A DNA stretch of 64,000 nt from Rufibacter hautae. Lineage in GTDB: Bacteria; Bacteroidota; Bacteroidia; Cytophagales; Hymenobacteraceae. The translations under genes and the position numbers were made by a program. The stretch is from the NCBI RefSeq assembly GCF_008271695.1, contig NZ_VKKY01000003.1:682001-746000 (forward strand), in the 5' to 3' direction. Below the pieces are notes generated by a model. The model saw only the letters and a program-made list of their open reading frames with translations, was not told the DNA's origin and ran no database searches. How positions within the stretch are numbered: the stretch's first letter is position 1; every line of letters begins with the position of its first letter. Of the stretch, positions 2,476-59,515 are shown piece by piece.

Positions 2476-2510
2476 GTTTTTGGCCCAGTTTTTGAAATAC
2501 AGGCTGAAAG
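2476..2510. repeat. Dispersed 36-bp palindrome, copy 1
   Basis: Starts 2 bp after the birA stop codon. Left arm GTTTTTGGCC, right arm CAGGCTGAAAG; imperfect. Confidence 0.6.
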
Positions 2511-2579
2511 AAGCTTGTACAGAACAAAGGGCTTATTGATTTTTTTATAGATAAAGATAGGAAATATTCTATAGTTTAG

Positions 2580-2610
2580 TTTGTAGTTTAAAGTTCCGTT
2601 GCTATATTTG
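2580..2610 (+). promoter_or_regulatory. Bacteroidota-type promoter for the T9SS cargo gene
   Basis: TTTG at 2580-2583 and TATATTTG at 2603-2610, separated by 19 bp, match the -33/-7 consensus of Bacteroidota sigma factor. Transcription would begin near 2617, so the in-frame start at 2599 cannot be used and the ATG at 2653 is supported. Confidence 0.7.
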
Positions 2611-2652
2611 AACGATTCCGCATTTGATCACCAACTTCTTGGCATATATGGT

Positions 2653-3288
2653 ATGAAAATTTTTACACGCGTTTTCCTGGGCATTTTAACCCTGGGCATA
2701 GTTTTAGGTAGTAAAGCATCTTCTCTGGGTGAGATGAGGGGTGGTCTGCCCCTGGGTTCCCGTACCGTCAGCACGTCTGGTTCTGATACCGTTTTCCTGA
2801 ACTGGCGAACCAACGCCAATTTAGCGATCACGGATTTTGGGATATCGGCATCCTCTGCTCTTTCTTCCTACAACCCCAACGTGAAAAAGTATTCTCCATT
2901 GTTGTACCTGACCAAAAATACAGGTGCCAAGACGGCTAAACCCGGATTGCGCCAGCTTACCACGGCCTTGTACGCCAGCACAAGCAAGATCCTTTCGGGG
3001 AACCAGGGGGTGAAGGAGCCCAAGCTTATTCCGTCCCTCAGCGCGTACCCTAACCCGTCCAGGGGCATGACCCGGATCTCGTTGAGCTCGCTGGGCGATG
3101 ACAACTACAAGATCAGGATCTCCAATGCCATTGGAAAGGTGTACAAAGAGATTCCGGTGACCAAGCCCGCCAACTCTGAGACCATCATGGTGGACCTTTC
3201 GCCTTTGCCGGCCGGTATCTATTTCTATAGCCTGCTGGTTAACGAAAAGATGGTGGAAACCAAACGACTCATTCTGCAGCAGCAATAA
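2653..3288 (+). CDS. Small secreted protein with T9SS type A sorting domain
   Basis: A 211-residue protein: Sec signal peptide (residues 1 to about 22, MKIFTRVFLGILTLG), a short middle part with no recognised domain, and a C-terminal sorting domain of about 75 residues beginning at the SAYPNPSRG motif and ending in PLPAGIYFYSLLVNEKMVETKRLIL. This tail directs export across the outer membrane by the Por/type IX system and is normally cleaved off. The mature passenger is therefore only about 110 residues, unusually small. Start at 2653 is chosen because the promoter lies downstream of the alternative start and because the signal peptide begins there. Own promoter upstream and a strong terminator downstream make it monocistronic. 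Confidence 0.85.
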   Translation: MKIFTRVFLGILTLGIVLGSKASSLGEMRGGLPLGSRTVSTSGSDTVFLNWRTNANLAITDFGISASSALSSYNPNVKKYSPLLYLTKNTGAKTAKPGLRQLTTALYASTSKILSGNQGVKEPKLIPSLSAYPNPSRGMTRISLSSLGDDNYKIRISNAIGKVYKEIPVTKPANSETIMVDLSPLPAGIYFYSLLVNEKMVETKRLILQQQ

Positions 3289-3311
3289 TTTTAAGCTGCC
3301 CAAGTTATAGA

Positions 3312-3340
3312 AGAGCCAGCCTGCGCTGGCTCTTTTTTTA
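3312..3340 (+). terminator. Intrinsic terminator
   Basis: Stem AGAGCCAGC / GCTGGCTCT with a 4-nt loop, then seven T. It ends the T9SS cargo transcript. Confidence 0.85.
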
Positions 3341-3411
3341 TTTATTGGGGTTATCAAGCGCCTAGACGTGGAGAAAATTGCTAATTTCGAGGGTTCAATC
3401 TTAAACACATC

Positions 3412-6400
3412 ATGTTGCAATACAATCGGATCAACAATCTGGTAGGTTGGTTGGTATTTGCGGTGGCCACCATCGCGTACGTACTTACACTGGAGCCAAC
3501 GGCCAGTTTCTGGGACAGCGGAGAATTCATTGCCTGCTCTTACAAACTTCTGGTCCCACACCCTCCCGGAGCTCCTTTTTACCTTTTGCTAGGCCGTATT
3601 TTCTCTTTGTTTGCGAGCGATCCTTCGCAAGTGGCCTGGTGGGTGAACCTGCTTTCCGCGCTTTCCAGCTCGTTTACGGTATTGTTCCTTTTCTGGACCA
3701 TCAGCATCCTGGCTCGCAAACTGCTGGTGCCTTCCGCTGCGGCGGCCTCCCGGCTGTCTTACTCAGCGGCAGACGCTGAAACCGTGGTAAAGCCAACCCT
3801 GGGGCAGACCATCGCCATTATGGGCGCCGCCGCCGTAGGTGCGCTGGCTTTCACATTCTCTGACTCTTTCTGGTTTTCAGCGGTAGAGGCCGAGGTATAT
3901 GCCTTTTCGTCTTTCTTCACTGCCTTTGTGGTATGGGCCATGCTCCGTTGGGAAAGCCGCGCGCATGATGCCGTTTCTGACAAATGGCTGATTCTTATCG
4001 CCTACATGGTGGGTCTGTCTATCGGGGTCCATTTGCTGAACCTGGTAGCCATTCCTGCTTTGGCCTTCATTTTCTTTTTCCGGCTTAAAAAGTACTCCAA
4101 CAAGGGCGCCATCATCACCTTGGTGGTAAGTGCTCTGATTCTGGGTATCGTGCTGGTGGGGATTATTCCAGGCTTGCCTTCCATTGCCGGTTCCTTCGAG
4201 GTGATGTTCGTGAACAGCTTCGGGCTGCCGTTTGGCTCTGGGGTGATCTTCTTTGTGGTGTTGTTCATCGCAGCTATTGTGTGGGCGGTGCGTTATGCCA
4301 TCAAAACCGGCAACCGCACGCTGCACACCGCCTTGCTGAGTTTCATTTTCGTGCTCATCGGGTACTCTTCTTACCTCATCATTCCTATCCGGTCTGGCTA
4401 CGACCCCACCATTGACGAGAACGACCCAGAGAACATCGTGAGCTTTGTGTCTTACCTCAAGCGTGAGCAGTACGGCGACCGTCCGCTTTTATTCGGGCCG
4501 CAGTTCAATGCTGAGCCGGTAGACCAGAAAGAAGGCGCTGCGCAATACATCAAGGGCAAGGACAAGTACATTGAGGTGGGCCGCAAGGTAGAGCCAGTGT
4601 ATGATTCCAATGACAAGACCCTGTTGCCGCGCCTGTACAGCAACCAGCCCGGGCACATTGCCCAGTACAAGAAATGGGTAGACATACAGGAAGGCCAGAA
4701 ACCAAGCTTCGGCGAGAACATGAGCTTCCTGTTCCGTTACCAAATGGGCCACATGTTCTGGCGTTATTTCGGGTGGAACTTCGTGGGGCGTGAGGGCGAT
4801 ATCCAACAGTCTGGCGTGCTATGGCCTTGGGAGGGCAATGATGGGCTTCCGGCCCGCATTGCCGAGAGCAAAGCCCGCAACAATTTCTACATGCTGCCGC
4901 TGGCGCTGGGGGTTTTGGGCTTGATTTTCCAAATCAGGAGAAAACAGCGCGATGCCTTTGTGGTGGGGCTTTTGTTCTTCTTCACCGGTATTGCCATTGT
5001 CATCTACCTGAATCAGCCGCCTATTGAGCCGCGCGAGCGCGATTACACCTTTGCCGGTGCCTTCTACGCCTACTGTATCTGGATTGGCCTGGGCGTATTG
5101 GCGGTCGCCGATTTCCTGCGCCGTGCTTTGAAGTCTGATGTGCTGGCCGGGGTGGTGGCTACCGTAGTGGGTTTACTTATCCCCGGTATTATGGCGGCCC
5201 AGGGTTGGGACGACCATGACCGCTCAGACCGTTACCACTCCGTTGACTCGGCTAAAAACCTGTTGAGCTCCGTGGCGCCGAATGCCATCTTGTTCACCAA
5301 CGGTGACAACGACACCTTCCCGCTTTGGTACGCCCAGGAAGTGGAAGGTTTCCGGACCGATGTTCGCGTAGCGGTACTCTCTTACATGAACACCGACTGG
5401 TACCTGGATCAGATGAAGCGCCAGGCCTACAAGTCTGAGCCGTTCCCGATGAGCCTGGAAAACGAGAACTACCGCCAGGGCATCAACGACTACCTGCCGT
5501 ATGTAGAGCGCCCCGAGGTGGCCAATGGCATTGACCTGAAACAATACATCCAGTTGGTGAAGCAGAACCACCAGGCGCTGCAGATAGGCGACCGCGCCGG
5601 CCGGACGTACCTGTCTTTCCCAACGAAGAACTTCTTCCTGAACGTGGACAAGAACGCTGTCATCACGGCCAACGCGGTACCGGCGGCCTACAGAGACTCC
5701 ATCGTGAGCCAGATGCGCTTTACCATTGACAAAGGCGGCCTGGAGAAAAAGCATTTGGCTATCCTTGACCTGTTGGCCAACAACAACTGGAAACGCCCCG
5801 TGTACTTCTCTACCACTGCCGATAATTCTGACTTCATGGGCTTGGACAACTACCTGCAACTGGAAGGCCTGGCCTACAGAATTGTGCCGGTGCAGAGCCG
5901 TAGCGAAGATCAGATGGGCTACATCGCCAAGGACATCATGTATGACAACATGATGAACAAGTTCTCCTGGCGCAACCTAGACCGCACCGATATTTTCTAC
6001 GATGAGAACTACCTGCGTTTCCCGGCCAACGCCCGCGATAAGTATTACCAATTGACTCTGGAGTACCTGAAAGCAGGCGACAAAGCCACCGCCAAGAAGA
6101 TCATGGACTACGTCTTCACGCAGTTGCCAGACAAATCTATTCCGTACGACTACTACATTCCGCCGTTTGTGGTGCCGTTGTACGAGGTAGGCGAGCAGAA
6201 ACGCGCCCAGGAGATCGTGAATACCATGTCAGCAAGGTCAGATGCCGCGCTGCGGTACTACTTCACGCAGAGCTCTATGTTTGAGACCGAGATCCGGATT
6301 AACCTGTTCATCATGCAGCAGTTGATCCAAGTGTCGCGCCAGGTAGGATTGACCCAGAAATCTGCCGAGATTGAGCAGAAGTTCATGCAGTACTACGGCC

Positions 6401-6414
6401 AAATGGGCAAGTAA
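3412..6414 (+). CDS. DUF2723 / glycosyltransferase family 117 membrane protein
   Basis: A 1000-residue inner-membrane protein of a family nearly confined to Bacteroidota. The N-terminal half is a multi-span GT-C-like core with the conserved TASFWDSGEFIACSYKL segment (about 30-46) and PHPPGAPFY next to it. These resemble the acidic first-loop motif of lipid-linked sugar transferases. Further membrane spans follow up to about residue 600, then a soluble C-terminal region (about 600-1000) with an NGDNDTFPLWYAQE segment and TPR-like helices near the end. Transfer of a sugar from a lipid carrier to protein is an inference from family annotation. It appears to be a single-gene unit followed by a terminator. 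Confidence 0.85.
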   Translation: MLQYNRINNLVGWLVFAVATIAYVLTLEPTASFWDSGEFIACSYKLLVPHPPGAPFYLLLGRIFSLFASDPSQVAWWVNLLSALSSSFTVLFLFWTISILARKLLVPSAAAASRLSYSAADAETVVKPTLGQTIAIMGAAAVGALAFTFSDSFWFSAVEAEVYAFSSFFTAFVVWAMLRWESRAHDAVSDKWLILIAYMVGLSIGVHLLNLVAIPALAFIFFFRLKKYSNKGAIITLVVSALILGIVLVGIIPGLPSIAGSFEVMFVNSFGLPFGSGVIFFVVLFIAAIVWAVRYAIKTGNRTLHTALLSFIFVLIGYSSYLIIPIRSGYDPTIDENDPENIVSFVSYLKREQYGDRPLLFGPQFNAEPVDQKEGAAQYIKGKDKYIEVGRKVEPVYDSNDKTLLPRLYSNQPGHIAQYKKWVDIQEGQKPSFGENMSFLFRYQMGHMFWRYFGWNFVGREGDIQQSGVLWPWEGNDGLPARIAESKARNNFYMLPLALGVLGLIFQIRRKQRDAFVVGLLFFFTGIAIVIYLNQPPIEPRERDYTFAGAFYAYCIWIGLGVLAVADFLRRALKSDVLAGVVATVVGLLIPGIMAAQGWDDHDRSDRYHSVDSAKNLLSSVAPNAILFTNGDNDTFPLWYAQEVEGFRTDVRVAVLSYMNTDWYLDQMKRQAYKSEPFPMSLENENYRQGINDYLPYVERPEVANGIDLKQYIQLVKQNHQALQIGDRAGRTYLSFPTKNFFLNVDKNAVITANAVPAAYRDSIVSQMRFTIDKGGLEKKHLAILDLLANNNWKRPVYFSTTADNSDFMGLDNYLQLEGLAYRIVPVQSRSEDQMGYIAKDIMYDNMMNKFSWRNLDRTDIFYDENYLRFPANARDKYYQLTLEYLKAGDKATAKKIMDYVFTQLPDKSIPYDYYIPPFVVPLYEVGEQKRAQEIVNTMSARSDAALRYYFTQSSMFETEIRINLFIMQQLIQVSRQVGLTQKSAEIEQKFMQYYGQMGK

Positions 6415-6480: not shown

Positions 6481-6516
6481 GTTTGTGGCCTCTTTTCAGG
6501 AAATCGGGTTAAAAAC
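6481..6516. repeat. Dispersed 36-bp palindrome, copy 2
   Basis: Follows the terminator of the GT117 gene. Left GTTTGTGGCC, centre TTTTCAGGAAA, right end GGGTTAAAAAC. Confidence 0.55.
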
Positions 6517-7509: not shown

Positions 7510-7555
7510 AGCGCTTCGGGCCTGTTTTTAAGAAAACAGGCCCGAAGCGCTTTTT
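7510..7555 (+). terminator. rlmB terminator built around a copy of the dispersed palindrome (copy 3)
   Basis: Perfect 19-bp arms, AGCGCTTCGGGCCTGTTTT and its complement, with a 4-nt TAAG loop, then TTTTT. The core GGCCTGTTTT / AAAACAGGCC is the best-preserved palindrome copy in the window. The outer arms are unique sequence that is nevertheless fully complementary. Confidence 0.85.
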
Positions 7556-12588: not shown

Positions 12589-12624
12589 ATTTTAGTGGTG
12601 TTTTATAATAAATAGCCCTAAAAC
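12589..12624. repeat. Dispersed 36-bp palindrome, copy 4
   Basis: Between the recQ terminator and purD. Right half AGCCCTAAAAC well kept, left half ATTTTAGTGG degenerate. Confidence 0.5.
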
Positions 12625-14020: not shown

Positions 14021-14056
14021 GTATTGAGGCTGCTTTTTAAAAATAAGACATGAAAT
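14021..14056. repeat. Dispersed 36-bp palindrome, copy 5 (weak)
   Basis: Poorly preserved; recognised by AGGCTGCTTTTTAAAAAT and the final GAAATG, at the expected place between purD and its terminator. Confidence 0.3.
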
Positions 14057-14165: not shown

Positions 14166-15449
14166 ATGTCTCTCCAACCTGACTATACCACCGCCGAAGA
14201 AGCGGTTAAACTGATTAAATCCGGGAACCGCGTTTTTGTGCACGGGGCCGCCATGACGCCGTTGCGCCTGGTGAATGCCGTATCGGCCCGCGGTCCTGAA
14301 CTCCGGGACGTGGAGTTCATCCATATGCACACCGAGGGGCCGGCACCTTATACTTCCGCTGAGCACGCAGGGAGTTTCAAGACCAATGCCTGCTTTGTGG
14401 GAGGCAACATCCGGCAGGCCCTCAGCCAGGGGCACGCTGATTACATTCCTATTTTCCTGAGTGAGATCTCCTTCCTGTTTCGGCGCAACATTCTGCCGCT
14501 GGACGTGGCCCTGATACAAGTGTCACCGCCCGATGGGCACGGCTACTGCACCTTGGGCTCTTCCGTGGATATTGCCTTGTCGGCGGTTGAGACCGCCAAA
14601 ATCCTGATTGCCGAGGTGAATCCCCACGTGCCGCGCTCTCACGGTGATGGGGTAGTACACATCAGTAAGATACACGCCAAGGTGTGGGTGGAAGAGCCTC
14701 TGATAGAGCACGGGGGCAAGACGCCCGGCGCAGTGGAGACCCAGATTGGCAAACTAGTGGCTGAATTGGTGGATGACGGAGCCACACTGCAAATGGGCAT
14801 CGGGGGTATTCCAGACGCGGTGCTGGCGCAACTTGGTAACCATAAAGACCTGGGTATCCATACCGAGATGTTCTCCGATGGCATTATCCCTTTGGTGGAG
14901 AAGGGAGTGATTACGGGTGCCAAAAAGAAAATCCTGAAACACAAGATTGTCTCCTGTTTCGTGAACGGCACCCAGAAGGTCTTCGATTTCCTGCATGACA
15001 ACCCAACGGTGGTATTGAAAGAGGCGGTGTATACCAATGACACGGCCATCATCCGGCAGAACAACAAAGTCACCGCCATCAACAGTGCCATTGAGGTAGA
15101 CCTGACCGGCCAAGTCTGCGCCGATTCCATTGGCATGTACCAGTTCTCAGGCGTAGGCGGGCAAATGGACTTCATCAGAGGTGCGGCGCTCTCCAAAGGC
15201 GGCAAGCCGATCATTGCCCTGCCATCTATCACGAACAAAGGCGAATCAAAGATTGTGAACGTGCTGAAAGCTGGGGCTAGCGTGACCACCACGCGTGCCC
15301 ATGTGCACTACATTGTGACTGAGTTTGGGATCGCAGATTTATACGGCAAAAACCTTCGGCAACGGGCCCAGGAACTGATCAGGATTGCGCACCCCAACCA
15401 CCAGGCAGAACTGGAGCGGCTGGCTTTTGAGCGGTTTAAGGTGCTTTAA
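14166..15449 (+). CDS. Acetyl-CoA hydrolase/transferase family protein
   Basis: CoA-transferase of the acetyl-CoA hydrolase / 4-hydroxybutyrate CoA-transferase type; it moves CoA between acyl groups or releases it. The 427-residue protein has the N-terminal half with GNRVFVHGAAMTPLRL and PLDVALIQVSPPDGHGYCTLG, and the C-terminal half with LQMGIGGIPDAVL, GLHTE-like GIHTEMFSDG, the catalytic-Glu region, GVGGQMDFIRGA and the GIADLYGK end. Both halves are present, so it is full length. The substrate cannot be told from sequence. The start ATG 14166 (MSLQPDYTTAEEAV) fits the family; upstream codons do not. Confidence 0.85.
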   Translation: MSLQPDYTTAEEAVKLIKSGNRVFVHGAAMTPLRLVNAVSARGPELRDVEFIHMHTEGPAPYTSAEHAGSFKTNACFVGGNIRQALSQGHADYIPIFLSEISFLFRRNILPLDVALIQVSPPDGHGYCTLGSSVDIALSAVETAKILIAEVNPHVPRSHGDGVVHISKIHAKVWVEEPLIEHGGKTPGAVETQIGKLVAELVDDGATLQMGIGGIPDAVLAQLGNHKDLGIHTEMFSDGIIPLVEKGVITGAKKKILKHKIVSCFVNGTQKVFDFLHDNPTVVLKEAVYTNDTAIIRQNNKVTAINSAIEVDLTGQVCADSIGMYQFSGVGGQMDFIRGAALSKGGKPIIALPSITNKGESKIVNVLKAGASVTTTRAHVHYIVTEFGIADLYGKNLRQRAQELIRIAHPNHQAELERLAFERFKVL

Positions 15450-15514: not shown

Positions 15515-15550
15515 GTTTAAAGCCTGATTTCCTGAAAACACTTTTAAAAC
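15515..15550. repeat. Dispersed 36-bp palindrome, copy 6
   Basis: Left GTTTAAAGCCTG, centre ATTTCCTGAAAA, right CTTTTAAAAC; runs into the terminator stem. Confidence 0.55.
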
Positions 15551-16882: not shown

Positions 16883-16918
16883 GTTTAAAGCCTCCTTTTG
16901 GAATTCAGAGCCTTAAAC
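16883..16918. repeat. Dispersed 36-bp palindrome, copy 7
   Basis: GTTTAAAGCC left, AGAGCCTTAAAC right, exactly 36 bp, between the convergent rpsT and pyk terminators. Confidence 0.6.
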
Positions 16919-23752: not shown

Positions 23753-23789
23753 GTTTAGGGCCTGTTTTCTGTAAAGCAGGTCCTAAAAC
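23753..23789. repeat. Dispersed 36-bp palindrome, copy 11
   Basis: One of the best copies: CGTTTAGGGCCTGTTTTC left, AGCAGGTCCTAAAACG right; about 30 bp after nadE. Confidence 0.7.
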
Positions 23790-24635: not shown

Positions 24636-27092
24636 CTATTTTCCGCCGCTCAAAGCATCATCGTTCTGAATGGATTTCTTCTGCTTCTGGCTGGCCTGCA
24701 TCTTCCCGAAAGTCCAGTCAAACCCGATTCTGAACGTGCGATTGTAGTTGATGTTCTGTACGGTTTGCTCGTAACCAGGGGTAATGACGGTGTACTTGAA
24801 GATAAAGGTGTTGGAAAACGGATTGTTCACCCCGAAGCTAATGGAGCCTTTGTCCTGCATCACTTTCTTGCGCACCGAGAAGCTGTTGTAGTAGTTCTCC
24901 CCGATATTCACCTGCAGCATCTTGCTCTTGGAGTTATAGCCGGCATTTGCTTGCGCAGTTAGGCCCTTGGCGATCTCGTAGCTGGTGCTCAGGTTCAGGT
25001 TGTATTGCAGTCCCTCTCTTTTCTGGCGGTTGTCCTCCATGCTCACGTAGTTCAGGTTCAGGCTTGGGCTGATGGTCCAGGTGGGGATTGGCTTGGTAGA
25101 ACCAGATAAACTCAGCCCGTACACGCGGTTCTTGCCGATGTTGTCATGGGTAATCAGCAATACTTCCCGCAGTTGGTTATTCACCACCAATTGCTCCGGC
25201 GCCAATACCTGCTGGATAGAGTTGTTTGTTTGGCGCAGGAACAGGGAGGCGTTGATGGAAGTGGTTTTGAAGAAAGTGTTGTAGCCAACCTCAAAGGCGT
25301 GGGTCAATTCAGCATCTAAGGTTGGATTTCCGCGGTACCCGAAGTTGAAGTCTTCCAGCTGCAGGAAAGGGTTCAGCGAGTAGATCTGCGGCCGCTGGAT
25401 GCGCTGGGTGTAGCTTACCCGTACGGTATGGATGGTGTCAATGGTGCGCGACACGCTTAGGCTGGGGATCACGTTCTGGTACGCGTCTTTGAAGGCGCTT
25501 CTCACCAGTTGGGTTTCTTTGGCGTCGTCGTTCCATTGCGAATTCAGGAACACGCCTTTGGTGGTGGTGTGCTCATAGCGGGTACCTAGGTTCACGTCAA
25601 ATTTTCTCAGCTGGAAAGCGTAGGTGGCGTACGCGGCCTTTACATCCTGGTCATAGTCAAAGTTGTTGATGACGGTAGAATCTGTCTGGGTGGGGAACGT
25701 GTACGCGTAAGTGGTGCGGCTATGCGCATCCCGGAAGATAGCTTTGGCGCCCAACTCCAGTTTGCCTCCGTTTTTGTAGGTCTGGGTGTAATCTAGCTGC
25801 AGGGTTTTCTCTTCACTGGGCGAGGTGTTGTCGTTTACCTGGCGTTGCACCAAAGGCGCCTCGGGGGAGTAGAGCAGGTTATCGTAAAGGTCATTGGATT
25901 CATTGTGGTTCAGTTGGGCCAGAAAGGTCAATTCCTGCTTGGGCTTGAAGGTGCGGGTGTACCCGAAATTCACATCATAGCCAGAGCCGTTCCAGGGGTT
26001 TTCCAGGTCTGAGTACGCCACCGGAAGCTGCTCAGAGCCAGCGCCTCGGTTAAGGGTAGTCTGGTAGCCAGAACCCAAGAAGTAATTCCGCCGGGTAGAA
26101 ACTCCCAGGTTGAAGGCGTTCATGGTATCTGGGTCAAAGGTGAGTTCTGCCTTGGCATTGAACCCGTGGTTCAGAGAAAGATTGCGGCTTTCTTGTTGCA
26201 GGGTAGATTGGCCGTCGGTGGTACGGTTTGTCAGATTAAGTCGGCGGTTGTTGCTGTCATAGCCACTCACGCTGGTGCTCAGCCCAAACTTGCCTTTCTT
26301 CACGTTTAAACTGCCATTCACGTTGCGGTACCGGCTGCCTAAAGAAAGGCTGGTCTTTCCGCTCACCCCTTGCAGGCTGTTCTTTTTAGTGACGATGTTG
26401 ATGATGCCAGCCGTTCCCTCCGCGTCATACTTCGCCGAGGGACTGGTGATCACTTCGATGCTTTTAATAATATCCGCCGGGATCTGCTTCAGGGCATCGG
26501 CTAGGTTGTTGGCCAGAATACTGGAGGGTTTGCCATCCATGAGGACCCTGAAATTAGCGCTGCCCCGCAACTGCACGTTGCCGTCTCCGTCTACCGTCAC
26601 CGAAGGCACTTTCCGGAGCACCTCTGAAGCGGTGGTTCCCTGGTTGCTGATATCCTGCTCGGCGTTGTACACCAACTTGTCTCCTTTATCTTCGATGAGA
26701 GCTTTCTGGCCCACCACAGTCACTTCCTGCAACTTGGTGGCATTTGATCTCAGGTTGATGTTGGGTAGGGAGATCTCCTGTTTATCGGCTGAAATAGTAA
26801 AAGAAGGCACAGACTGGGACACGTACCCCAAGTAACTCACCGAGAGGGAGTAAGTGCCCTTCGCTACTTTGGTGAAGGTGAAGGTGCCTTTTTCATCGGT
26901 GATGGTGCCATCCACGGGCTTTCCGGTGGCGGTGCTGGTCAGCGAAACGGTGGCAAATTCCACGGGTTTGGTAGTAGCCGAATCCAATACTTGGCCCGTT
27001 ATTTTACCGGCTGGGGTTTGGGCCTGCGCCCGCAGGGGAGAGGCTATGATGAAACAAAGAACGAACAGAGTAGCAAGGATGGAGAGACGCAT
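24636..27092 (-). CDS. TonB-dependent-receptor-like outer membrane protein (CarboxypepD_reg + plug + barrel), paralogue A
   Basis: An 818-residue outer membrane protein. Order: signal peptide (about 1-24, ending RAQAQ), CarboxypepD_reg-like domain (about 28-110, KITGQVLDSATTKPVEFATVSL), plug domain (about 120-230) with VPSVTVDGDGNVQLRGSANF, ALKQIPADIIKSIEVITSPSAKYDAEGTAGIINIVTKKN, then a long beta-barrel of the OMP_b-brl_3 type ending FRIGFDWTFGKMQ and a charged tail KKSIQNDDALSGGK. Family members import or sense ligands at the outer membrane; no ligand can be named, and no SusD partner lies beside it. The start is the Met at 27092, which begins the signal peptide. Confidence 0.85.
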   Translation of the reverse strand: MRLSILATLFVLCFIIASPLRAQAQTPAGKITGQVLDSATTKPVEFATVSLTSTATGKPVDGTITDEKGTFTFTKVAKGTYSLSVSYLGYVSQSVPSFTISADKQEISLPNINLRSNATKLQEVTVVGQKALIEDKGDKLVYNAEQDISNQGTTASEVLRKVPSVTVDGDGNVQLRGSANFRVLMDGKPSSILANNLADALKQIPADIIKSIEVITSPSAKYDAEGTAGIINIVTKKNSLQGVSGKTSLSLGSRYRNVNGSLNVKKGKFGLSTSVSGYDSNNRRLNLTNRTTDGQSTLQQESRNLSLNHGFNAKAELTFDPDTMNAFNLGVSTRRNYFLGSGYQTTLNRGAGSEQLPVAYSDLENPWNGSGYDVNFGYTRTFKPKQELTFLAQLNHNESNDLYDNLLYSPEAPLVQRQVNDNTSPSEEKTLQLDYTQTYKNGGKLELGAKAIFRDAHSRTTYAYTFPTQTDSTVINNFDYDQDVKAAYATYAFQLRKFDVNLGTRYEHTTTKGVFLNSQWNDDAKETQLVRSAFKDAYQNVIPSLSVSRTIDTIHTVRVSYTQRIQRPQIYSLNPFLQLEDFNFGYRGNPTLDAELTHAFEVGYNTFFKTTSINASLFLRQTNNSIQQVLAPEQLVVNNQLREVLLITHDNIGKNRVYGLSLSGSTKPIPTWTISPSLNLNYVSMEDNRQKREGLQYNLNLSTSYEIAKGLTAQANAGYNSKSKMLQVNIGENYYNSFSVRKKVMQDKGSISFGVNNPFSNTFIFKYTVITPGYEQTVQNINYNRTFRIGFDWTFGKMQASQKQKKSIQNDDALSGGK

Positions 27093-27392
27093 TGGGATTT
27101 CTTTTGCAGGTTTAGGGTGTATCACATCAGGTTCACAGGGACGCACTTCTTCCAGCCGCCGCTACCACCTGGTAGCCGCGTGGGGCGGAATAGGACATCT
27201 TTCGTGGGATTGGGTAAGCAGTTGATGCGCGCAACTGTCTATTAGATGTGAGACTTTCTTCGGCGGTTGCCTGAGTTGCAAACTTTTTTCGTTTTCGTGC
27301 TATTTCTGGCAAAACAAGCTGAAAACGCCTAGTTAATTTTTCAAGGCTGAAGAAATCCTTTCAAGGAAAGCGATCTCCCAAATTGGTAAGGG
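27093..27392. other. Intergenic region between receptor paralogues A and B
   Basis: Holds palindrome copy 14 and the presumed promoter of paralogue A. No clear TAnnTTTG box on the minus strand near the start. Confidence 0.35.
27291..27326. repeat. Dispersed 36-bp palindrome, copy 14
   Basis: GTTTTCGTGC left, CAAGCTGAAAAC right, 36 bp. Confidence 0.55.
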
Positions 27393-27426
27393 CAAAAAAA
27401 AGAAGCACCACGTAAGGAGTGCTTCT
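27393..27426 (-). terminator. Terminator of receptor paralogue B
   Basis: On the minus strand: stem AGAAGCAC / GTGCTTCT followed by seven T. Confidence 0.82.
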
Positions 27427-27449
27427 GGTAAATTGGAAGAAAGGTAAAC

Positions 27450-29972
27450 TTAGTTGCCTTCTCCGCCTTTGGCGTCATCGTTTCGGATGGACTTGCTGCG
27501 GCGCGGCTTCTGGTTCATCTCCATTTTCCCGAAACGGTACGAGAAACTCACCCGCACGCTTCGGTTGTAATTCTGGTTGATGCTGTTCTGCTCAAAGGTG
27601 GTGCTGCGCAAATCAGAAGTGAACTTGATGGTCTTGGAAAACGGATTATCCACGCCCAGGCTCAGGCTGCCTTTCTTGTCCCACAGCTGTTTCCTGATGC
27701 TGAAGCTGGAGTAATAGTACCCCGAGAATTTCCCCTGTATGGTGGGTCTAGGTGAGCTGTAATTCCCGAAGAACTGCACCGCCAGGTCTTTCCCGAAATC
27801 ATAGCTGGAGTTGAGGCTGGTGTTGTACTGCATGGCGGAGTTGCTTTGGAGCGTACTCTTAAGCGTGATGTAGTTCAGGTTGAAAGAGCCCCCGATGGTC
27901 CACTTAGGCATCGGCTTGGTGTTCCCCGAGAAACTGAGGCCGTAGGTAGCGTTCTTCCCGATGTTCTGGTAGGTGTTATAGGAGACACCGGGCTGTTGCC
28001 AGGTACCGTCCAGCACGGGCAAAGCACCTTCGTCGCCCACAATGCGGCGGATGGATTCAATGGCGTTATTGGTCTGTCGCAAGTACAAAGACACGTTCAC
28101 TGAGCTGGTCTTGAAGTAGTTGCTGTAGCCCAACTCATAGGCATGCGACAACTCCGGCTCCAACTCCGGGTTCCCGAACGACACGTTCTTTGCGTCTATG
28201 ATATTCACGTATGGGTTCAGGTACCAGATCTGCGGCCGCTGGATGCGTTGGGTGTACCCCACCCGCACCGTCTGGCTTTTGAAGTTGCGGGAGATCAGAA
28301 TATTGGGGATGAAATTGTAGTAGTTGTCTGTGAACGGGTCTTGGTAAGGTTGGATGTACTTGCCGTCAATGGCCGTGTACTCAAAGCGGGCCCCAGATTT
28401 CACGTTGTAGTTTTTAAACAGTTTGAAGCCGTAAGAAGCGTAGGTAGAGTACACGTCCTGGTCATAGGAGAACTCATTGGGCCGCAAATCTTCCGCGCCG
28501 GTAGAAAGTCTGAGTCTGCGGTACATCGCATCGCTTTCGGCGTGGCGCAGGATGCCTTTGGTACCTACCTCCAGTTGGGTTTTGTTCTGGAACGGATGCA
28601 CGTAATCTACCTGGAACGTCATCTCGCGGTTGGAGCCGTCATTGGTGTTGCGCAAAAGCGTGTCCAGGGTGTAGTTCTGGTTCAGGAAGATGTCCTGGTC
28701 TGAGGAGCTGTTGTTCTGACCTTTGTTCCATTGCGCCAATACCGACAATTCCTGCTGTGGCTTGAAGATGTGGGTGTACCCGATGTTCGCGTCTACAGAA
28801 GCATTCTTGTTGGCACCCCTCAGGTCATTCTCAATCTGCTGCAGGCCATTGGGGTCTCTGGTCAGGGAGTTCTGGAAGCCCTGGTTGCGGTAATTACCCC
28901 GGTAAATATTGATCCCCGCATTGATGGTGTTGGAAGAATCCAGGTCGGCGTCGAACCCAACTTGGCCATAGACCCCGCCGCCACGCCGTTTAGATTCTCC
29001 CATCTGATCCAGGAAAGAATCAAACTTCTCAAGATTGGGTCTGCTTTTGGTAGAGCGGTGCAGTTCGCTGTCGTTTTGGTTGTTGTATTGTTGGTGGGTA
29101 CCCAAACTGGCATTGAAGCCTACCTTTCCGCGCCGCACGTTCACGTTACCGTTTCCGCTGGAGTTTCGGTTGCCCACAGAGGTACTCACGCTGCCGTTCA
29201 CGCCGTACAAAGTGTTCTTTTTGGTGATGATGTTGATGATCCCCGCCGTACCCTCTGCGTCATACTTGGCCGAGGGGCTGGTAATCACCTCCACGGTTTT
29301 GATCATGTCTGATGGGATCTGCTTCAAGGCATCGGCCACGCTGTTGGCCATGATGCTGGAGGGCTTGTTGTTGATGAGCACCCGCACGTTGGAGGAGCCG
29401 CGCAACTGCACGTTCCCGTCCAAATCCACCGTAAGCGAAGGCACCTTTTTGAGCACGTCTGAGGCGTTGCCGCCAATGTTGGTGATGTCCTGATCGGCGT
29501 TGTAGACCATGCGGTCCACTTTGTCTTCCACCAGCGGTTTCTCGCCTACCACGGTCACCTCCTTCAGCTTGTTTTGGATGGGTTTCAGCACAATGCGGCC
29601 CAACACTATCTCAGGGTCTTTGTCTGACACGATTATCCCGGCGCGGGTGAAACTCTCGTAGCCAATAAAACTCACCGAAACAGAATAAGTGCCGTTCGCC
29701 ACCCGTGACAAAGTGAAGCGGCCCCGATCATCGGTCACGGTGCCGTCAATGGGTTTTCCGGTGGCGGTGCTCACCAAAGAAATCGTCGCGAACTCCACAG
29801 GCTTGGTGGTGGAAGAATCAGTGACTACGCCGCTTATCTTCCCGGCTACCCGCTGCACCCCTCCGCCCGCTGCGGTGGCCGTAGAAGGAGTAGGGACAAG
29901 GGAGGAGGTTTGTGCCCGCAAGGAGGCCACAGTTGCCAGGCTAAGGCAGGCAATAAGTAAAGGGTGACGCAT
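27450..29972 (-). CDS. TonB-dependent-receptor-like outer membrane protein, paralogue B
   Basis: An 840-residue paralogue of the neighbouring gene with the same order: signal peptide (MRHPLLIACLSLATVASLRAQ), CarboxypepD_reg domain (GKISGVVTDSSTTKPVEFATISL, about 43-125), plug domain (VPSLTVDLDGNVQLRGSSNVRVLINNKPSS, ALKQIPSDMIKTVEVITSPSAKY), and a large barrel ending VSFSYRFGKMEMNQKPRRSKSIRNDDAKGG. Identity to paralogues A and C is highest in the plug and C-terminal tail and low in the barrel loops, which suggests the same machinery with different ligands. No SusD-like lipoprotein is adjacent. Confidence 0.85.
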   Translation of the reverse strand: MRHPLLIACLSLATVASLRAQTSSLVPTPSTATAAGGGVQRVAGKISGVVTDSSTTKPVEFATISLVSTATGKPIDGTVTDDRGRFTLSRVANGTYSVSVSFIGYESFTRAGIIVSDKDPEIVLGRIVLKPIQNKLKEVTVVGEKPLVEDKVDRMVYNADQDITNIGGNASDVLKKVPSLTVDLDGNVQLRGSSNVRVLINNKPSSIMANSVADALKQIPSDMIKTVEVITSPSAKYDAEGTAGIINIITKKNTLYGVNGSVSTSVGNRNSSGNGNVNVRRGKVGFNASLGTHQQYNNQNDSELHRSTKSRPNLEKFDSFLDQMGESKRRGGGVYGQVGFDADLDSSNTINAGINIYRGNYRNQGFQNSLTRDPNGLQQIENDLRGANKNASVDANIGYTHIFKPQQELSVLAQWNKGQNNSSSDQDIFLNQNYTLDTLLRNTNDGSNREMTFQVDYVHPFQNKTQLEVGTKGILRHAESDAMYRRLRLSTGAEDLRPNEFSYDQDVYSTYASYGFKLFKNYNVKSGARFEYTAIDGKYIQPYQDPFTDNYYNFIPNILISRNFKSQTVRVGYTQRIQRPQIWYLNPYVNIIDAKNVSFGNPELEPELSHAYELGYSNYFKTSSVNVSLYLRQTNNAIESIRRIVGDEGALPVLDGTWQQPGVSYNTYQNIGKNATYGLSFSGNTKPMPKWTIGGSFNLNYITLKSTLQSNSAMQYNTSLNSSYDFGKDLAVQFFGNYSSPRPTIQGKFSGYYYSSFSIRKQLWDKKGSLSLGVDNPFSKTIKFTSDLRSTTFEQNSINQNYNRSVRVSFSYRFGKMEMNQKPRRSKSIRNDDAKGGEGN

Positions 29973-30208
29973 GAAGGGAGAGTTGGAAGATAGAGAAAGG
30001 GTTGAACGATAGGTTAATTGATTTAATAAGTAATAGAAGAAAAGCTAATTTGGTATTCAGAAACAGGTATATGCAGAATGATTTTTTGGGGATAAATTGT
30101 CTGTAGAGCAGTCAGTGAATTAGACCTTTTTTCAGAGCGATGGTTTAAATCACTTTCCAAAGACAGACAAAAAAGAACGAGGTTGCGCCGCCTAATGGGA
30201 GGACGGTT

Positions 30209-30244
30209 GTTTTAAGCTTGATTTTCTTAAATGCTGGCTAAAAC
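30209..30244. repeat. Dispersed 36-bp palindrome, copy 15
   Basis: GTTTTAAGCTTG left, GGCTAAAAC right; 16 bp downstream of the stop of the minus-strand CarboxypepD_reg gene. Confidence 0.62.
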
Positions 30245-30260
30245 AGAAAGTAGAAGGCGG

Positions 30261-31423: not shown

Positions 31424-31466
31424 TGAAAAGCAGAAGAGCGATAACTGGGTAGTCATCGCTCTTCTT
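31424..31466 (-). terminator. Terminator of receptor paralogue C
   Basis: Fifteen-bp stem starting AGAAGAGCGAT with a 4-nt loop; its single non-Watson-Crick pair is G-U only in minus-strand RNA, so it acts for the minus-strand gene. TTTT follows. Confidence 0.78.
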
Positions 31467-31483
31467 ATGGGTGCTAAAACGGC

Positions 31484-34015: not shown

Positions 34016-34431
34016 ACAGAGGTTAAAGAAGATAATTGCTTTTGGGGCTGACAAAGGTAACCAATGATTTGCGGGGATTCGGGTATTAGTGTAACACCCG
34101 TCCGCAGAGCACCAGTATTTATTCAGTTGTAGCATTAGTATGCCCGGCCGGGCGATTATTACAGCCCCAAAAACAAAAAGAAGCTTTTTAACAGAACCTT
34201 AACATTTTCGCTAACAGGTCATCTGCGTAATAGGCGTGATATGAAGTGGTTGCCTTCTTCTGGTTTGCTTTCCCGGAAAGGCCTTGAAGCAGCGGAAAGG
34301 AACAGATGAGCTATCCTTTGAATGTTCTTCCAAGAAACAACAAGACGATTGGCAGAACTTAAAAAGGAAGCCGAAATCAGCTTTGTTCTGAAGAGTTTTT
34401 CTGCTAACCGTTAACAAAGAGGTGAGGAGCT
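34016..34431. other. Intergenic region upstream of receptor paralogue C
   Basis: Carries the paralogue C promoter near 34052-34059. The rest (34060-34431) shows no credible gene; a 68-codon minus-strand frame at 34211-34417 has no recognisable product. Confidence 0.4.
34052..34059 (-). promoter_or_regulatory. -7 element TACCTTTG upstream of receptor paralogue C
   Basis: Minus-strand TACCTTTG; no TTTG at -33. Predicted leader of about 30 nt to the ATG at 34015. Absence of the -33 box could mean activator dependence. Confidence 0.5.
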
Positions 34432-38988: not shown

Positions 38989-39024
38989 GTTTTCAAACCG
39001 ATTTGACCAGAACGGGCTGAAAAC
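38989..39024. repeat. Dispersed 36-bp palindrome, copy 20
   Basis: GTTTTCAAACCG left, CGGGCTGAAAAC right; adjacent to the msrB terminator. Confidence 0.5.
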
Positions 39025-40512: not shown

Positions 40513-40548
40513 GTTTTCGGCCAAGATTCCTTAAAAGAGGCTAAAAAC
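40513..40548. repeat. Dispersed 36-bp palindrome, copy 22
   Basis: GTTTTCGGCC left, GAGGCTAAAAAC right; 8 bp downstream of the minus-strand deaminase stop. Confidence 0.62.
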
Positions 40549-54175: not shown

Positions 54176-54211
54176 GTTTTGGGCTTATATTATTAGAAGT
54201 AGGCCTAAAAC
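54176..54211. repeat. Dispersed 36-bp palindrome, copy 28
   Basis: GTTTTGGGC left, GTAGGCCTAAAAC right, 36 bp; 19 bp downstream of the arsN1 stop and 94 bp upstream of sigZ. Confidence 0.65.
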
Positions 54212-56827: not shown

Positions 56828-56858
56828 CAAAGTTACAGTTGTGTAGGTAATATACAAA
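56828..56858 (-). promoter_or_regulatory. Promoter of the second manC
   Basis: Minus strand TTTG (56858-56855), 19-bp spacer, TAACTTTG (56835-56828), an exact fit to the consensus. Leader of about 46 nt. Confidence 0.72.
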
Positions 56859-56985
56859 AAAATATTTAATTTATTAAAATATGTAATGCAAACGTTGGAA
56901 AGAAGTAGATAATTTCAAATTTGTAAGCTGTGCATAGCTTTTATTATGTGATTTTCAAGAAATGTACCAGAAATATGACTGTTGA

Positions 56986-57017
56986 TTTGTCTGAAATATA
57001 GAAGCATTGTAACTTTT
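56986..57017 (+). promoter_or_regulatory. Possible promoter of the first ugd
   Basis: TTTG at 56986-56989, 20-bp spacer, TAACTTTT at 57010-57017 (one mismatch to TAnnTTTG), in a very AT-rich 338-bp region between the divergent manC and ugd. Confidence 0.4.
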
Positions 57018-57113
57018 TTTGCTTTTGTTTAGAATACAGGTATGTTTGTATAAAGAAATTGTAAGAGGAACCTATTTTTAGTTCTAATAAAGTATAATTC
57101 TAATATATCTATT

Positions 57114-58466
57114 ATGAGAATCGCAGTAGTAGGCACAGGGTACGTAGGCCTGGTGACGGGCACGTGTTTCGCGGAGGTGGGCATCGACGTGACGTGCATC
57201 GACGTGAACGTCAAGAAGATCGAGGACCTGAAACAAGGTATTTTGCCCATCTACGAGCCGGGCCTGGAGGAGATGGTGCTCCGCAACGTGGAGAAGGGGC
57301 GGTTGCAGTTTTCCACGGACCTGGCCTCGGCGATCCAGGGCTGCGACGCGGCCTTCATCGCGGTGGGCACCCCGCCCGGCGAGGACGGCTCGGCGGACCT
57401 GAAGTACGTGCTGGGCGTGGCCCGGGAGATCGGCCAGCACATGGACGACTACCTGGTCGTGGTGACCAAGAGCACCGTGCCGGTGGGCACGGCCCAGAAG
57501 GTGAAGCAGGCAGTGGCAGAAGAACTGGAGAAGAGAAACTCCAGCCTTTCCTTCGACGTGGCCTCGAACCCCGAGTTCCTCAAGGAGGGCGCCGCGATCG
57601 ACGACTTCCTCAAGCCCGACCGGATCGTGATCGGGGTGGAGAGCGAGCAGGCCGAGGAGGTGATGCGCAAATTGTACAAGCCGTTCCTTTTGAACGGGCA
57701 CCCGATCATCTTCATGGACGTGCCCTCGGCGGAGATGACCAAGTACGCGGCCAACTCGATGCTGGCCACCAAGATCAGCTTCATGAACGACATCGCCAAC
57801 CTGTGCGAGCTGATGGGGGCGGACGTGAACATGGTGCGCCGCGGCATCGGCTCGGACTCGCGCATCGGCAACAAGTTCATCTACCCGGGCATCGGCTACG
57901 GCGGCTCCTGCTTCCCCAAGGACGTGAAGGCGCTGATAAAGACGGCCCAGGAGAACGGCTATGAGATGCAGATCCTGCAAGCGGTGGAGAGCGTGAACGA
58001 GAACCAGAAGGAGGTGCTCTTCAACAAGGTGATGCGGCACTTCTCAGGCGACATCAGCGGGAAGACCTTCGCGCTGTGGGGGCTCTCCTTCAAGCCCAAG
58101 ACCGACGACATGCGCGAGGCGCCCTCGCTGGTGATCATCGACAAGCTCCTCGCGGAGGGCGCCTCTGTGGTGGCCTACGACCCGGTAGCCATCAAAGAGG
58201 CCCGGCACATGATCGGGGAGAACGATAAGGTCCAATACGCCAAGGACGAGTACGAGGCCCTCATCGACGCCGACGCGCTGCTGATCGTGACCGAGTGGCC
58301 CGAGTTCCGCTCGCCCAATTTCCAGGTCATCGGCAAGCTGCTGAAAAGCAGGGTCATCATCGACGGCCGCAACATCTACGAGGCCAAGGAGCTGCAGGAG
58401 CTGGGCTTCTGCTACTACGGCATCGGGGTGAAGGAGGTGCTGCCCATCGTGGAGACCACGAACTAA
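57114..58466 (+). CDS. ugd: UDP-glucose 6-dehydrogenase, GC-rich copy
   Basis: Oxidises UDP-glucose to UDP-glucuronate with two NAD+, for acidic exopolysaccharide. The 450-residue protein has GTGYVG at residues 7-12 (NAD), [33 protein letters not shown], and the catalytic Cys266 in [10 protein letters not shown]; the C-terminal domain has [16 protein letters not shown]. Third codon positions are almost all G or C over most of its length, unlike neighbours. It is nearly identical in protein to the copy at 61937-63289. The uxs gene follows 42 bp downstream. Confidence 0.95.
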   Translation: MRIAVVGTGYVGLVTGTCFAEVGIDVTCIDVNVKKIEDLKQGILPIYEPGLEEMVLRNVEKGRLQFSTDLASAIQGCDAAFIAVGTPPGEDGSADLKYVLGVAREIGQHMDDYLVVVTKSTVPVGTAQKVKQAVAEELEKRNSSLSFDVASNPEFLKEGAAIDDFLKPDRIVIGVESEQAEEVMRKLYKPFLLNGHPIIFMDVPSAEMTKYAANSMLATKISFMNDIANLCELMGADVNMVRRGIGSDSRIGNKFIYPGIGYGGSCFPKDVKALIKTAQENGYEMQILQAVESVNENQKEVLFNKVMRHFSGDISGKTFALWGLSFKPKTDDMREAPSLVIIDKLLAEGASVVAYDPVAIKEARHMIGENDKVQYAKDEYEALIDADALLIVTEWPEFRSPNFQVIGKLLKSRVIIDGRNIYEAKELQELGFCYYGIGVKEVLPIVETTN

Positions 58467-58508
58467 AAGACAGAGAAGACACTAAAAAGACGCTACTTCA
58501 AGGCTATA

Positions 58509-59486
58509 ATGGCAAAAACGGATAGAAAACGCGTGCTCATCACCGGCGCCGCCGGTTTCCTCGGCTCGCACCTGTGCGACCGCTTCATCAAGGAGGGCTA
58601 CCACGTGATCGGGATGGACAACCTGATCACCGGGGACCTCAAAAACATCGAGCACCTATTCAAATTAGGGCAGTTCGAGTTCTACCACCACGACGTGTCC
58701 AAGTACGTGCACGTGCCGGGCGAGCTGGACTACATCCTGCACTTCGCCTCGCCGGCCTCGCCCATCGACTACCTCAAGATCCCGATCCAGACGCTGAAGG
58801 TGGGGTCCCTGGGCACGCACAACCTGCTGGGGCTGGCGCGGGCGAAGGGCGCGCGGATGCTGATCGCCTCCACCTCGGAGGTGTACGGCGACCCGGAGGT
58901 GCACCCGCAGGTGGAGGAGTACTGGGGGAACGTGAACCCCGTCGGTCCCCGCGGCTGCTACGACGAGGCCAAGCGCTTCCAGGAGGCCATCACCATGGCC
59001 TACCATATGCACCACGGCCTGGAGACGCGCATCGTCAGGATCTTCAACACCTACGGGCCCAGGATGCGCCTCAACGACGGCCGCGTGCTGCCCGCCTTCA
59101 TGGGCCAGGCGCTCAGGGGCGAGGAATTGTCCATCTTCGGGGACGGCTCCCAGACGCGCTCCTTCTGCTACGTGGACGACTTGGTGGAGGGCATCTACCG
59201 GCTGCTCTTGAGCGACTACGCCCTGCCGGTGAACATCGGCAACCCCTCGGAGGTGACCATCAGGGAGTTCGCCGAGGAGATCTGCAAGCTGACGGGCGTG
59301 GAGCTGAAGCTGGGCTACCAGCCCCTGCCCGAGAACGACCCGCAGAAACGCAGGCCGGATATCTCCAAGGCCAAGGCCCTGCTGGGCTGGGAGCCCCAGG
59401 TCTCCCGGGCGGAGGGCCTCAAAAGGACCCTGGAGTACTTCCGGGAGAACGTCCACGCGGAAGAGGTCGAGCATCGGGCGTTTTAG
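58509..59486 (+). CDS. UDP-glucuronic acid decarboxylase (SDR), GC-rich copy
   Basis: Converts UDP-glucuronate to UDP-xylose with bound NAD+. The 325-residue protein has [10 protein letters not shown] (Gly13, Gly16 and Gly19), [14 protein letters not shown], the YDEAK catalytic pair, [10 protein letters not shown] and [13 protein letters not shown]. It directly follows ugd, so UDP-glucose goes to UDP-xylose in two steps. The codon use is as GC-rich as in the adjacent ugd. Its TAG stop is part of palindrome copy 30. Confidence 0.93.
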
Positions 59487-59515
59487 AACTCTTTTTCAAA
59501 AAAATAGGCTGAAAA
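59480..59515. repeat. Dispersed 36-bp palindrome, copy 30, supplying a stop codon
   Basis: Begins GTTTTAGAAC; the TAG is the stop of the GC-rich uxs gene. Right end AGGCTGAAAA. It is AT-rich, in contrast to the gene before it. Confidence 0.58.

What the first reader, a model, noticed from the sequence alone, without database searches (positions are those of the whole stretch)
2476..59515. A dispersed family of about 30 degenerate 36-bp palindromes in intergenic spaces
Reading the intergenic spaces side by side gives a shared 35-37 bp unit: left arm GTTTTnGGCCTG, centre TTTTCnGAAAA, right arm CAGGCCTAAAAC. I found about 30 copies (positions in the feature list), roughly one per 2 kb, nearly all outside genes, each different in detail but keeping total length and symmetry. 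Clear examples: 15515-15550, 16883-16918, 23753-23789, 31385-31420, 40513-40548, 54176-54211. The size and the intergenic habit recall REP/BIME elements of enterobacteria, but the sequence is not one I know. No transposase or tyrosine REP-associated transposase is in the window.
Basis: seen in the sequence. Interest (0 to 1): 0.78.

Follow-up and report, generated by a model that had tools for sequence, protein, structure and literature searches.

The report
Genus-specific dispersed DNA recognition sites
Rufibacter bacteria carry an estimated one to three thousand copies of a 36-40 base palindromic DNA site, often one in the gap behind the end of a gene and kept in the same places across the genus, while related bacteria use quite different words, which looks like a genome-wide 'self' signal read by an unknown protein.

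Summary
The family is real. A profile finds 39 copies in the window (0-1 in each of 20 shuffles) and 28 in its intergenic DNA (50 shuffles: 45 with none, at most 2). Extrapolated, the genome holds about 3,100. The site is in 16 of 16 genomes of the genus and in 0 of 193 other genomes of the order.

It is not REP/RAYT. One genome has 991 near-consensus hits and no RAYT; the own RAYTs carry different repeats. Presence per gap agrees in 140 of 150 cross-species comparisons. Mirror positions barely covary, so it is mainly a double-stranded protein-binding palindrome.

Sites sit behind stop codons or terminators, before the next promoter, often one per gap, and are scarce in coding DNA, plasmid-like contigs and low-GC islands.

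Sister lineages carry unrelated dispersed words, like dialects.

Best reading, inferred: a self-recognition site maintained by drive, comparable to DNA uptake sequences (0.4). Main rival: a chromosome-organising or transcription-boundary site (0.3). The binding protein is unknown.

The parts
2476..2511 (.). site, 2 nt after a stop codon
   Evidence: profile 30.2 bits; site in the same gap in 5 of 5 species
6481..6516 (.). site behind a terminator
   Evidence: 42.5 bits; same gap in 5 of 5 species; alignment
7513..7548 (.). near-perfect palindrome forming the stem of a terminator (T-run follows)
   Evidence: 37.3 bits; 13 of 13 variable pairs
12589..12624 (.). site behind the terminator of the recQ-type gene
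   Evidence: 32.7 bits; present in all 10 aligned species
14021..14056 (.). site between the purD-type gene's stop and its terminator
   Evidence: 26.4 bits
15515..15550 (.). site in a convergent gap, abutting a terminator
   Evidence: 42.4 bits
16061..16096 (.). site in a divergent gap
   Evidence: 25.2 bits; same gap in 5 of 5 species
16883..16918 (.). site about 15 nt behind a terminator (convergent gap)
   Evidence: 30.7 bits
21448..21483 (.). site 12 nt after stop
   Evidence: 33.4 bits
21661..21696 (.). second site in the same gap
   Evidence: 32.5 bits
23753..23788 (.). site 30 nt after stop
   Evidence: 34.4 bits
23850..23885 (.). second site in the same gap
   Evidence: 27.7 bits
24584..24619 (.). 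site in a 60-bp convergent gap
   Evidence: 31.5 bits
27291..27326 (.). site in a gap between co-directional genes
   Evidence: 34.9 bits
30209..30244 (.). site 16 nt after stop
   Evidence: 33.9 bits
31385..31420 (.). site behind a terminator
   Evidence: 34.8 bits
34432..34467 (.). site 14 nt after stop
   Evidence: 39.2 bits
35441..35476 (.). site behind a terminator
   Evidence: 35.1 bits
37905..37940 (.). site in a convergent gap
   Evidence: 37.2 bits; 5 of 5 species
38989..39024 (.). site behind a terminator
   Evidence: 33.8 bits
39895..39930 (.). site inside the 3' end of a gene (13 nt before its end)
   Evidence: 28.3 bits
40513..40548 (.). site 8 nt after stop
   Evidence: 36.9 bits
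42313..42348 (.). site in a gap whose flanking gene calls differ between my two gene lists
   Evidence: 30.2 bits
44972..45007 (.). site 3 nt after stop, abutting a terminator
   Evidence: 30.8 bits
46284..46319 (.). site at a gene start as called (start possibly mis-called); site-like sequence in orthologues of 5 species
   Evidence: 25.0 bits
48348..48383 (.). site overlapping a stop codon in a 36-bp convergent gap
   Evidence: 44.5 bits
53414..53449 (.). near-perfect palindrome 21 nt after stop, flanks also pair
   Evidence: 34.5 bits
54176..54211 (.). site 19 nt after stop
   Evidence: 32.2 bits
55300..55335 (.). site in a 481-bp gap
   Evidence: 35.3 bits
59480..59515 (.). site overlapping a stop codon, followed by a terminator
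   Evidence: 26.4 bits

Best explanation
The unit is a double-stranded DNA recognition site of about 38-40 bp for a symmetric (dimeric or tetrameric) DNA-binding protein. Four T/A tracts centred near positions 3, 14, 23 and 34 lie roughly on one face of the helix, with G+C between them. Shown by calls: high copy number; restriction to one genus; fixed positions across the genus; key T/A positions kept while arms and flanks change; half-sites varying almost independently; placement in the permissive strip behind a stop codon or terminator and before the next promoter. Inferred: the protein itself, and that copies are kept by a genome-wide drive rather than by a separate function at each gene. 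The most likely drive is that a DNA-uptake or self-recognition receptor prefers DNA carrying the site, so that recombination keeps restoring it, as with DNA uptake sequences of Neisseriaceae. Sister lineages would then carry other 'dialects'. A minority of copies also serve as terminator stems.
For: 16 of 16 genus genomes, 0 of 193 others in the order. Presence or absence per orthologous gap agrees in 140 of 150. Identity of orthologous sites with five species: key T/A positions .88-.95, arms .51-.71, flanks .28-.54. Information 33, 46 and 51 bits in three species against about 12 bits needed to find that many sites, an excess expected of drive rather than of ordinary site-by-site selection. 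WC pairing of mirror positions about what independent columns give once the ~12% best-paired copies are left out. Coding DNA has few but real-looking sites, some mid-gene. Plasmid-like contigs and low-GC stretches are depleted. In 2 of 3 genomes sites are more evenly spaced than gap type and length predict, and site-free gaps lie nearer to another site. Unrelated dispersed words in sister lineages: a 29-bp asymmetric motif in g2 (844 v 0 in G016, 43 v 0 in G021), AAAGTATAAA in 9 of 14 g3 genomes at 377 to 2,020 copies, TTTATATATAG in one other (322 v 4). The g3 word is enriched inside genes in both orientations (58 v 2 control). Published: DUS dialects, permissive regions and terminator pairs (PMC3630211, passages); Riemerella columbina, a member of Flavobacteriaceae, prefers its own DNA (PMC7965970, passages).
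Against: I know of no uptake test for Rufibacter. ComEC is in 16 of 16 but also in 12 of 13 relatives outside the genus, so it says nothing. Known uptake sequences are short and often intragenic; this one is long, palindromic and mostly intergenic. One site per gap, with few gaps holding two, also fits a boundary function. Even spacing was not seen on CV in G006 (.88 v .78 simulated), where site-free and occupied gaps were also equally far from the next site (p=.95), nor for the g2 motif (CV 1.06). The unrelated motifs of sister genera may not be the same system; the DUS dialects described in PMC3630211 differ from each other by little. I found no convincing word in g4, g5 or g6. Mirror pairs covary slightly more than every one of 300 permutations in G000 and G005.
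Confidence: 0.4

Rival explanations
1. Gene-boundary or nucleoid site: an abundant symmetric DNA-binding protein sits on one site per transcription-unit end and blocks read-through from both sides or organises the chromosome.
For: Counts per gap are under-dispersed (variance/mean .22-.77 in all 12 convergent and co-directional length classes; short gaps can hold only one, which lowers it); 22 of 28 convergent gaps of 100-150 bp hold exactly one site; short divergent gaps hold few; 88 of 218 single-site co-directional gaps have the site <25 nt after the stop, and my simple rule finds a terminator in only 23 of those 88; in the 49 of 110 more distant cases with a terminator before the site, 29 sites start -4 to 12 nt from its stem; promoter-like TAnnTTTG after the site in 37, before it in 4 of 218. 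Positions conserved.
Against: Wholesale different motifs in sister lineages are hard to get by selection on each site; information far above need; strong sites inside genes; site-free gaps lie nearer to other sites in 2 of 3 genomes, unlike an operon effect; divergent gaps over 300 bp also hold sites (22 of 45); many sites follow an existing terminator.
Confidence: 0.3
2. REPIN-like or MITE-like mobile repeat family, active or domesticated.
For: High copy number, palindromic, extragenic; tight consensus in some species, loose in others.
Against: Static positions (140 of 150 gap comparisons agree); no RAYT in G006; own RAYTs have other flanking repeats; mirror arms do not covary as hairpins should; conservation is very uneven along the unit, unlike neutral decay; few copies on plasmid-like contigs and low-GC stretches.
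Confidence: 0.08
3. RNA hairpin or intrinsic terminator at mRNA 3' ends.
For: 3% of sites in the own genome, 25% in G005 and 20% in G006 are near-perfect palindromes, more than any of 300 permutations gave, with pairing continuing into the flanks; some are followed by a T-run.
Against: No general covariation; GT and AC mismatches on the sense strand nearly equal (178 v 169); of the listed copies most lie behind a separate terminator or lack a T-run.
Confidence: 0.04
4. Highly iterated motif kept by an unknown process, like cyanobacterial HIP1.
For: Lineage-specific, high copy number, unknown function.
Against: HIP1 is an octamer linked to DNA methyltransferases (PMC4390886, listing); the Rufibacter unit is 36-40 bp and mostly outside genes. 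Methyltransferases were not searched.
Confidence: 0.1

Closest known systems
DNA uptake sequences (DUS) and their dialects, Neisseriaceae (PMC3630211, passages seen)
   Same: high copy number, lineage dialects, permissive and intergenic places, inverted pairs at terminators (seen for the Pontibacter word)
   Different: DUS are 10-12-mers (recalled) with an uptake effect and the binding protein ComP; here the unit is a 36-40 bp palindrome, often one per gap, and uptake is untested
Uptake signal sequences of Pasteurellaceae (recalled)
   Same: long motif with A/T tracts about a helical turn apart, high copy number
   Different: not palindromic, mostly inside genes; other phylum
REP / REPIN elements with RAYT (PMC3733652, search listing and one passage; PMC8049555, passages)
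   Same: 20-40 bp extragenic palindromes, many copies
   Different: no RAYT link, no GTAG/CGTC tag, no general hairpin covariation, static positions
HIP1 of cyanobacteria (PMC4390886, start of abstract in the search listing)
   Same: hyper-abundant palindrome, role not settled, lineage-dependent
   Different: 8 bp; associated with orphan methyltransferases

Membership tests
REP/REPIN-RAYT | short extragenic palindrome in high copy | tested here: met
REP/REPIN-RAYT | hairpin with compensating changes in the arms | tested here: not met
   WC pairs as expected from independent columns except in a minority; small whole-set excess in G000 and G005, none in G006
REP/REPIN-RAYT | GTAG or CGTC tag at one end | tested here: not met
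   no such tetranucleotide in the flanks of the profiles, read by eye; tags named in the title of PMC3733652
REP/REPIN-RAYT | cognate RAYT gene in the genome, flanked by the repeat | tested here: not met
   G006 has none at E<=0.001; own RAYTs flanked by other repeats; but ordinary 36-bp sites also lie near both, one 12 nt after a RAYT stop
DUS/USS-like uptake sequence | hundreds to thousands of copies, far above chance, lineage-specific | tested here: met
DUS/USS-like uptake sequence | dialects in related lineages | tested here: inconclusive
   related lineages have other dispersed words, but unrelated in sequence to the Rufibacter unit
DUS/USS-like uptake sequence | common inside genes | tested here: not met
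   44 of 236, 12 of 177, 9 of 134 sites in called coding DNA in three Rufibacter genomes; met for the g3 word (58 of 111)
DUS/USS-like uptake sequence | biases DNA uptake through a receptor | not testable with these tools
   needs a transformation assay
DUS/USS-like uptake sequence | host has a DNA-uptake channel | tested here: met
   ComEC domain PF03772 in 16 of 16 genus genomes, but also in 12 of 13 others, so not discriminating
Intrinsic terminator | GC stem followed by a T-run on the transcribed strand | tested here: not met
   only a minority; sites mostly follow a separate terminator or directly follow the stop
KOPS/Chi-type oriented motif | strand bias along replichores | tested here: not met
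   unit is palindromic; the asymmetric g2 motif shows no consistent strand bias with GC skew over 14 pieces

The most novel reading that the evidence does not exclude
A whole bacterial family (that of Rufibacter, Pontibacter and Adhaeribacter) uses fast-changing genome-wide self-recognition codes: a 40-bp palindrome in Rufibacter, a 29-bp asymmetric site in the lineage of Adhaeribacter soli, and 10-11-mers in Pontibacter-like genomes, each read by an unknown protein. To my knowledge these would be the first uptake-signal-like dialects in Bacteroidota (searches listed none) and the most information-rich ones.
Probability: 0.33. Interest if true: 0.92.

Novelty: new variant of a known kind. Interest (0 to 1): 0.8.

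Why it matters
If the sites are uptake or self-recognition signals, they would bring molecular drive by DNA uptake to a phylum where own-DNA preference has been reported (R. columbina) with no signal named in the passages I read, and give a concrete motif to test. If they are boundary or nucleoid sites, Rufibacter would punctuate most gene ends with one protein-binding site, a form of chromosome organisation I know of in no bacterium. Either way the site is a ready bait to pull out an unknown, sequence-specific DNA-binding protein, and the unrelated motifs of sister lineages make its evolution testable.

Tried and rejected
Chance AT palindromes: rejected by shuffles and reversed-pattern controls. 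RNA hairpin: rejected for the family, kept for a minority. REP/RAYT: rejected. Mobile repeat: strained. Phage carriage: 0 exact hits in viral contigs, a strict pattern, so weak. Plasmid records: one 46-base query gave no match, weak. Replichore orientation of the g2 motif: none. A depletion of contig C2 suspected from the mismatch-limited list was not borne out by density in 80 kb of it, though mean scores there were somewhat lower. The half-site trade-off test was uninformative (Spearman -.12, +.29, +.13). The model search R1 scores at most about 112 candidates per genome, so it gives no copy numbers. Other lineages: G018 gave an AT-rich word (37 v 0 shuffled at >=18 bits) that vanished on refitting (0 hits); G019 gave nothing clear; the G029 word TTGATTATCAA (57 v 0) has 36 of 59 hits in called genes and is a lead only. 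The shuffle column was computed wrongly and is not used. Paper searches listed nothing that describes such a site in Rufibacter or its family; the library lacks most subscription journals. Gene calls are my own hexamer caller: stops are reliable, starts less so, and some called ORFs may be spurious.
Full report
OBSERVATION. The window belongs to an unnamed 5.84-Mb genome in 8 contigs (window = C3:682001-746000). Its nearest named relatives are Rufibacter species and Sabulibacter ruber, so it is taken as Rufibacter. EM on the window plus 383 kb of the same genome converges on 243 copies >=14 bits in 447 kb, against 0-2 in three shuffles. The 236 copies >=16 bits extrapolate to about 3,100 per genome. 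In the window 39 copies score >=16 bits: 27 intergenic, 3 partly in a gene, 9 in called genes.

ANATOMY. T3 T4, T14-16, A21-23, A33 A34 are 86-99% conserved; the GC arms are about 40-70%. The four boxes are centred near 3, 14, 23 and 34, about one helical turn apart, with G+C between. Across 181 intergenic copies the Watson-Crick frequency of mirror positions is about that of independent columns at most pairs (exceptions: 0-37 .48 v .39, 5-32 .58 v .46, 6-31 .35 v .28, 17-20 .36 v .28), and sense-strand GT and AC mismatches are nearly equal, 178 v 169. Whole-set permutation shows a small real excess in G000 (.614 v .593) and G005 (.767 v .726), none in G006 (.786 v .781). It comes largely from near-perfect palindromes (13 of 181 with >=11 of 13 variable pairs, 1.8 expected), whose pairing runs into the flanks. 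Without the ~12% best-paired copies observed and expected agree (.469/.477.647/.627.675/.694), though dropping them itself lowers the observed value. I read this as a dsDNA protein site, with a minority doubling as terminator stems.

PLACEMENT. Over three Rufibacter genomes (1.25 Mb sampled), 187 of 236, 164 of 177 and 125 of 134 sites are outside called coding DNA. Of 119 intergenic sites between co-directional genes in the own genome, 29 start within 10 nt after the stop or overlap it, and 20 lie at 60-80 nt, many just behind a terminator. In 689 gaps pooled over the three genomes (40-700 bp), convergent and co-directional gaps rise to about one site with variance/mean .22-.77. Divergent gaps have few when short (0 of 7, 1 of 12, 4 of 22, 12 of 28 for rising lengths up to 300 bp) and more when long (11 of 26 and 11 of 19). 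Of 218 single-site co-directional gaps, 88 have the site <25 nt after the stop; promoter-like TAnnTTTG lies after the site in 37 and before it in 4. Deep coding DNA still has 38, 10 and 7 hits against 0 for the reversed profile; some are mid-gene and strong, others are weak and come and go with synonymous changes.

DISTRIBUTION. 16 of 16 genus genomes have the pattern (13 to 1,848 hits over both strands, controls 0); 0 of 193 other genomes of the order have it. Named loci: 9 of 9 Rufibacter/Sabulibacter loci hold 10-13 sites per 22.7 kb; of 71 other loci 69 hold none and 2 hold one. Consensus tightness differs: 33, 46 and 51 bits in G000, G005 and G006 against about 12 bits needed, with species-specific letters.

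EVOLUTION. For orthologous gaps of the window in five species (only gaps whose two flanking genes were found adjacent, short gaps included), site present/present 83, own only 6, other only 4, absent/absent 57, i.e. 140 of 150 agree. At 10-20 single-site pairs per species, identity is .88-.95 at key positions.51-.71 in the arms and .28-.54 in the flanks (sites were found with the profile, which favours key positions, but presence itself was not preselected). Alignments of four gaps over ten species show arms changing wholesale with the frame of T/A boxes kept; after gene 3412-6414, R. roseus and R. ruber show no site in the stretch aligned. Depleted DNA: contig C4 of the own genome (1 site in 40 of 67 kb; its ORFs read to me like a conjugative element, no family search), C5 (1 in 20 of 42 kb), C7 (0 in 5 kb), and two low-GC pieces of G006 (2 sites each in 20 kb). 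Contig C6 (7.5 kb) has 3 sites.

NOT REP. PF01797 is found in 15 of 16 genomes and not in G006, which has 503+488 hits. One own RAYT is bracketed by a different inverted repeat with 3 copies in the genome, the other by a similar repeat; ordinary 36-bp sites lie near both, one 12 nt after a RAYT stop.

SISTER LINEAGES. g2 (G016, and the named locus of Adhaeribacter soli with 6 hits): an asymmetric 29-bp site, 197 in 280 kb against 0-1 shuffled; 137 outside and 59 inside called genes; 7 of 8 convergent 100-150 bp gaps hold exactly one, but divergent gaps are not spared (15 of 24 occupied). Genome-wide 453+391 v 0 in G016 and 23+20 v 0 in G021. g3 (probably Pontibacter, whose two named loci carry it): AAAGTATAAA, 964+1,056 v 12 in G034; 9 of 14 g3 genomes have 377 or more, the other 5 between 28 and 106. 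In G034 it is enriched inside (58 v 2) and outside genes (53 v 3) and depleted on contig C6 (7 in 80 kb v 206 in 280 kb of other contigs). G017 of g3 has TTTATATATAG instead (173+149 v 4). I did not find a convincing word in g4, g5 or g6. That these are one system is inference.

MECHANISM. Shown: a protein-type palindrome, static, genus-wide, in permissive DNA. Inferred: drive. The excess information, the wholesale change between lineages, sites in genes, depletion on plasmid-like contigs and low-GC stretches, and partly even spacing fit an uptake-type signal better than a need at each gene. On spacing: own genome 3.8% of distances <800 bp v 10.0% simulated, CV .68 v .77; G005 CV .62 v .77; G006 CV .88 v .78, i.e. 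not even. DUS are described as lying in permissive regions and at terminators, with dialects (PMC3630211, passages); R. columbina prefers its own DNA (PMC7965970, passages). The one-per-gap habit keeps a boundary or nucleoid role alive. I put 0.4 on the first and 0.3 on the second.

Noticed in passing
L055:12698-12987, 14270-14407; L091; G034 (L213-L247): Pontibacter-type genomes carry a dispersed 10-mer AAAGTATAAA, up to about 2,000 exact copies, in genes and at terminators as inverted pairs, depleted on one 139-kb contig.
   Followed up: partly
L209-L212, L223-L232 (G016): The lineage of Adhaeribacter soli carries an asymmetric 29-bp dispersed site, mostly between genes.
   Followed up: partly
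L205-L208 (G029), also Adhaeribacter loci: Palindromic word TAAnnnnTTGATTATCAAnnnnTTA above shuffles; 36 of 59 hits fall in called genes, so unclear.
   Followed up: no
L011:5685-6620; L012:4990-5790: Two IS200-like/RAYT genes, each flanked by its own inverted repeats around CAAGTTTRAGCGA...GTAACTTG, a small separate REP-like family.
   Followed up: partly
window 24636-34135: Three large minus-strand paralogues of about 836-883 aa with long direct repeats between them and a CarboxypepD_reg protein in between.
   Followed up: no
G022, G026, G035 (other genera): A handful of strong matches to the Rufibacter profile (best E 4.7e-9, 2.1e-4, 1.5e-7) in genera that otherwise lack it, possibly imported Rufibacter DNA.
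   Followed up: no
L144 (G006:C1:2665001-2685000): A stretch of 33% GC in a chromosome whose other sampled pieces are mostly near 50%, with only 2 sites.
   Followed up: no
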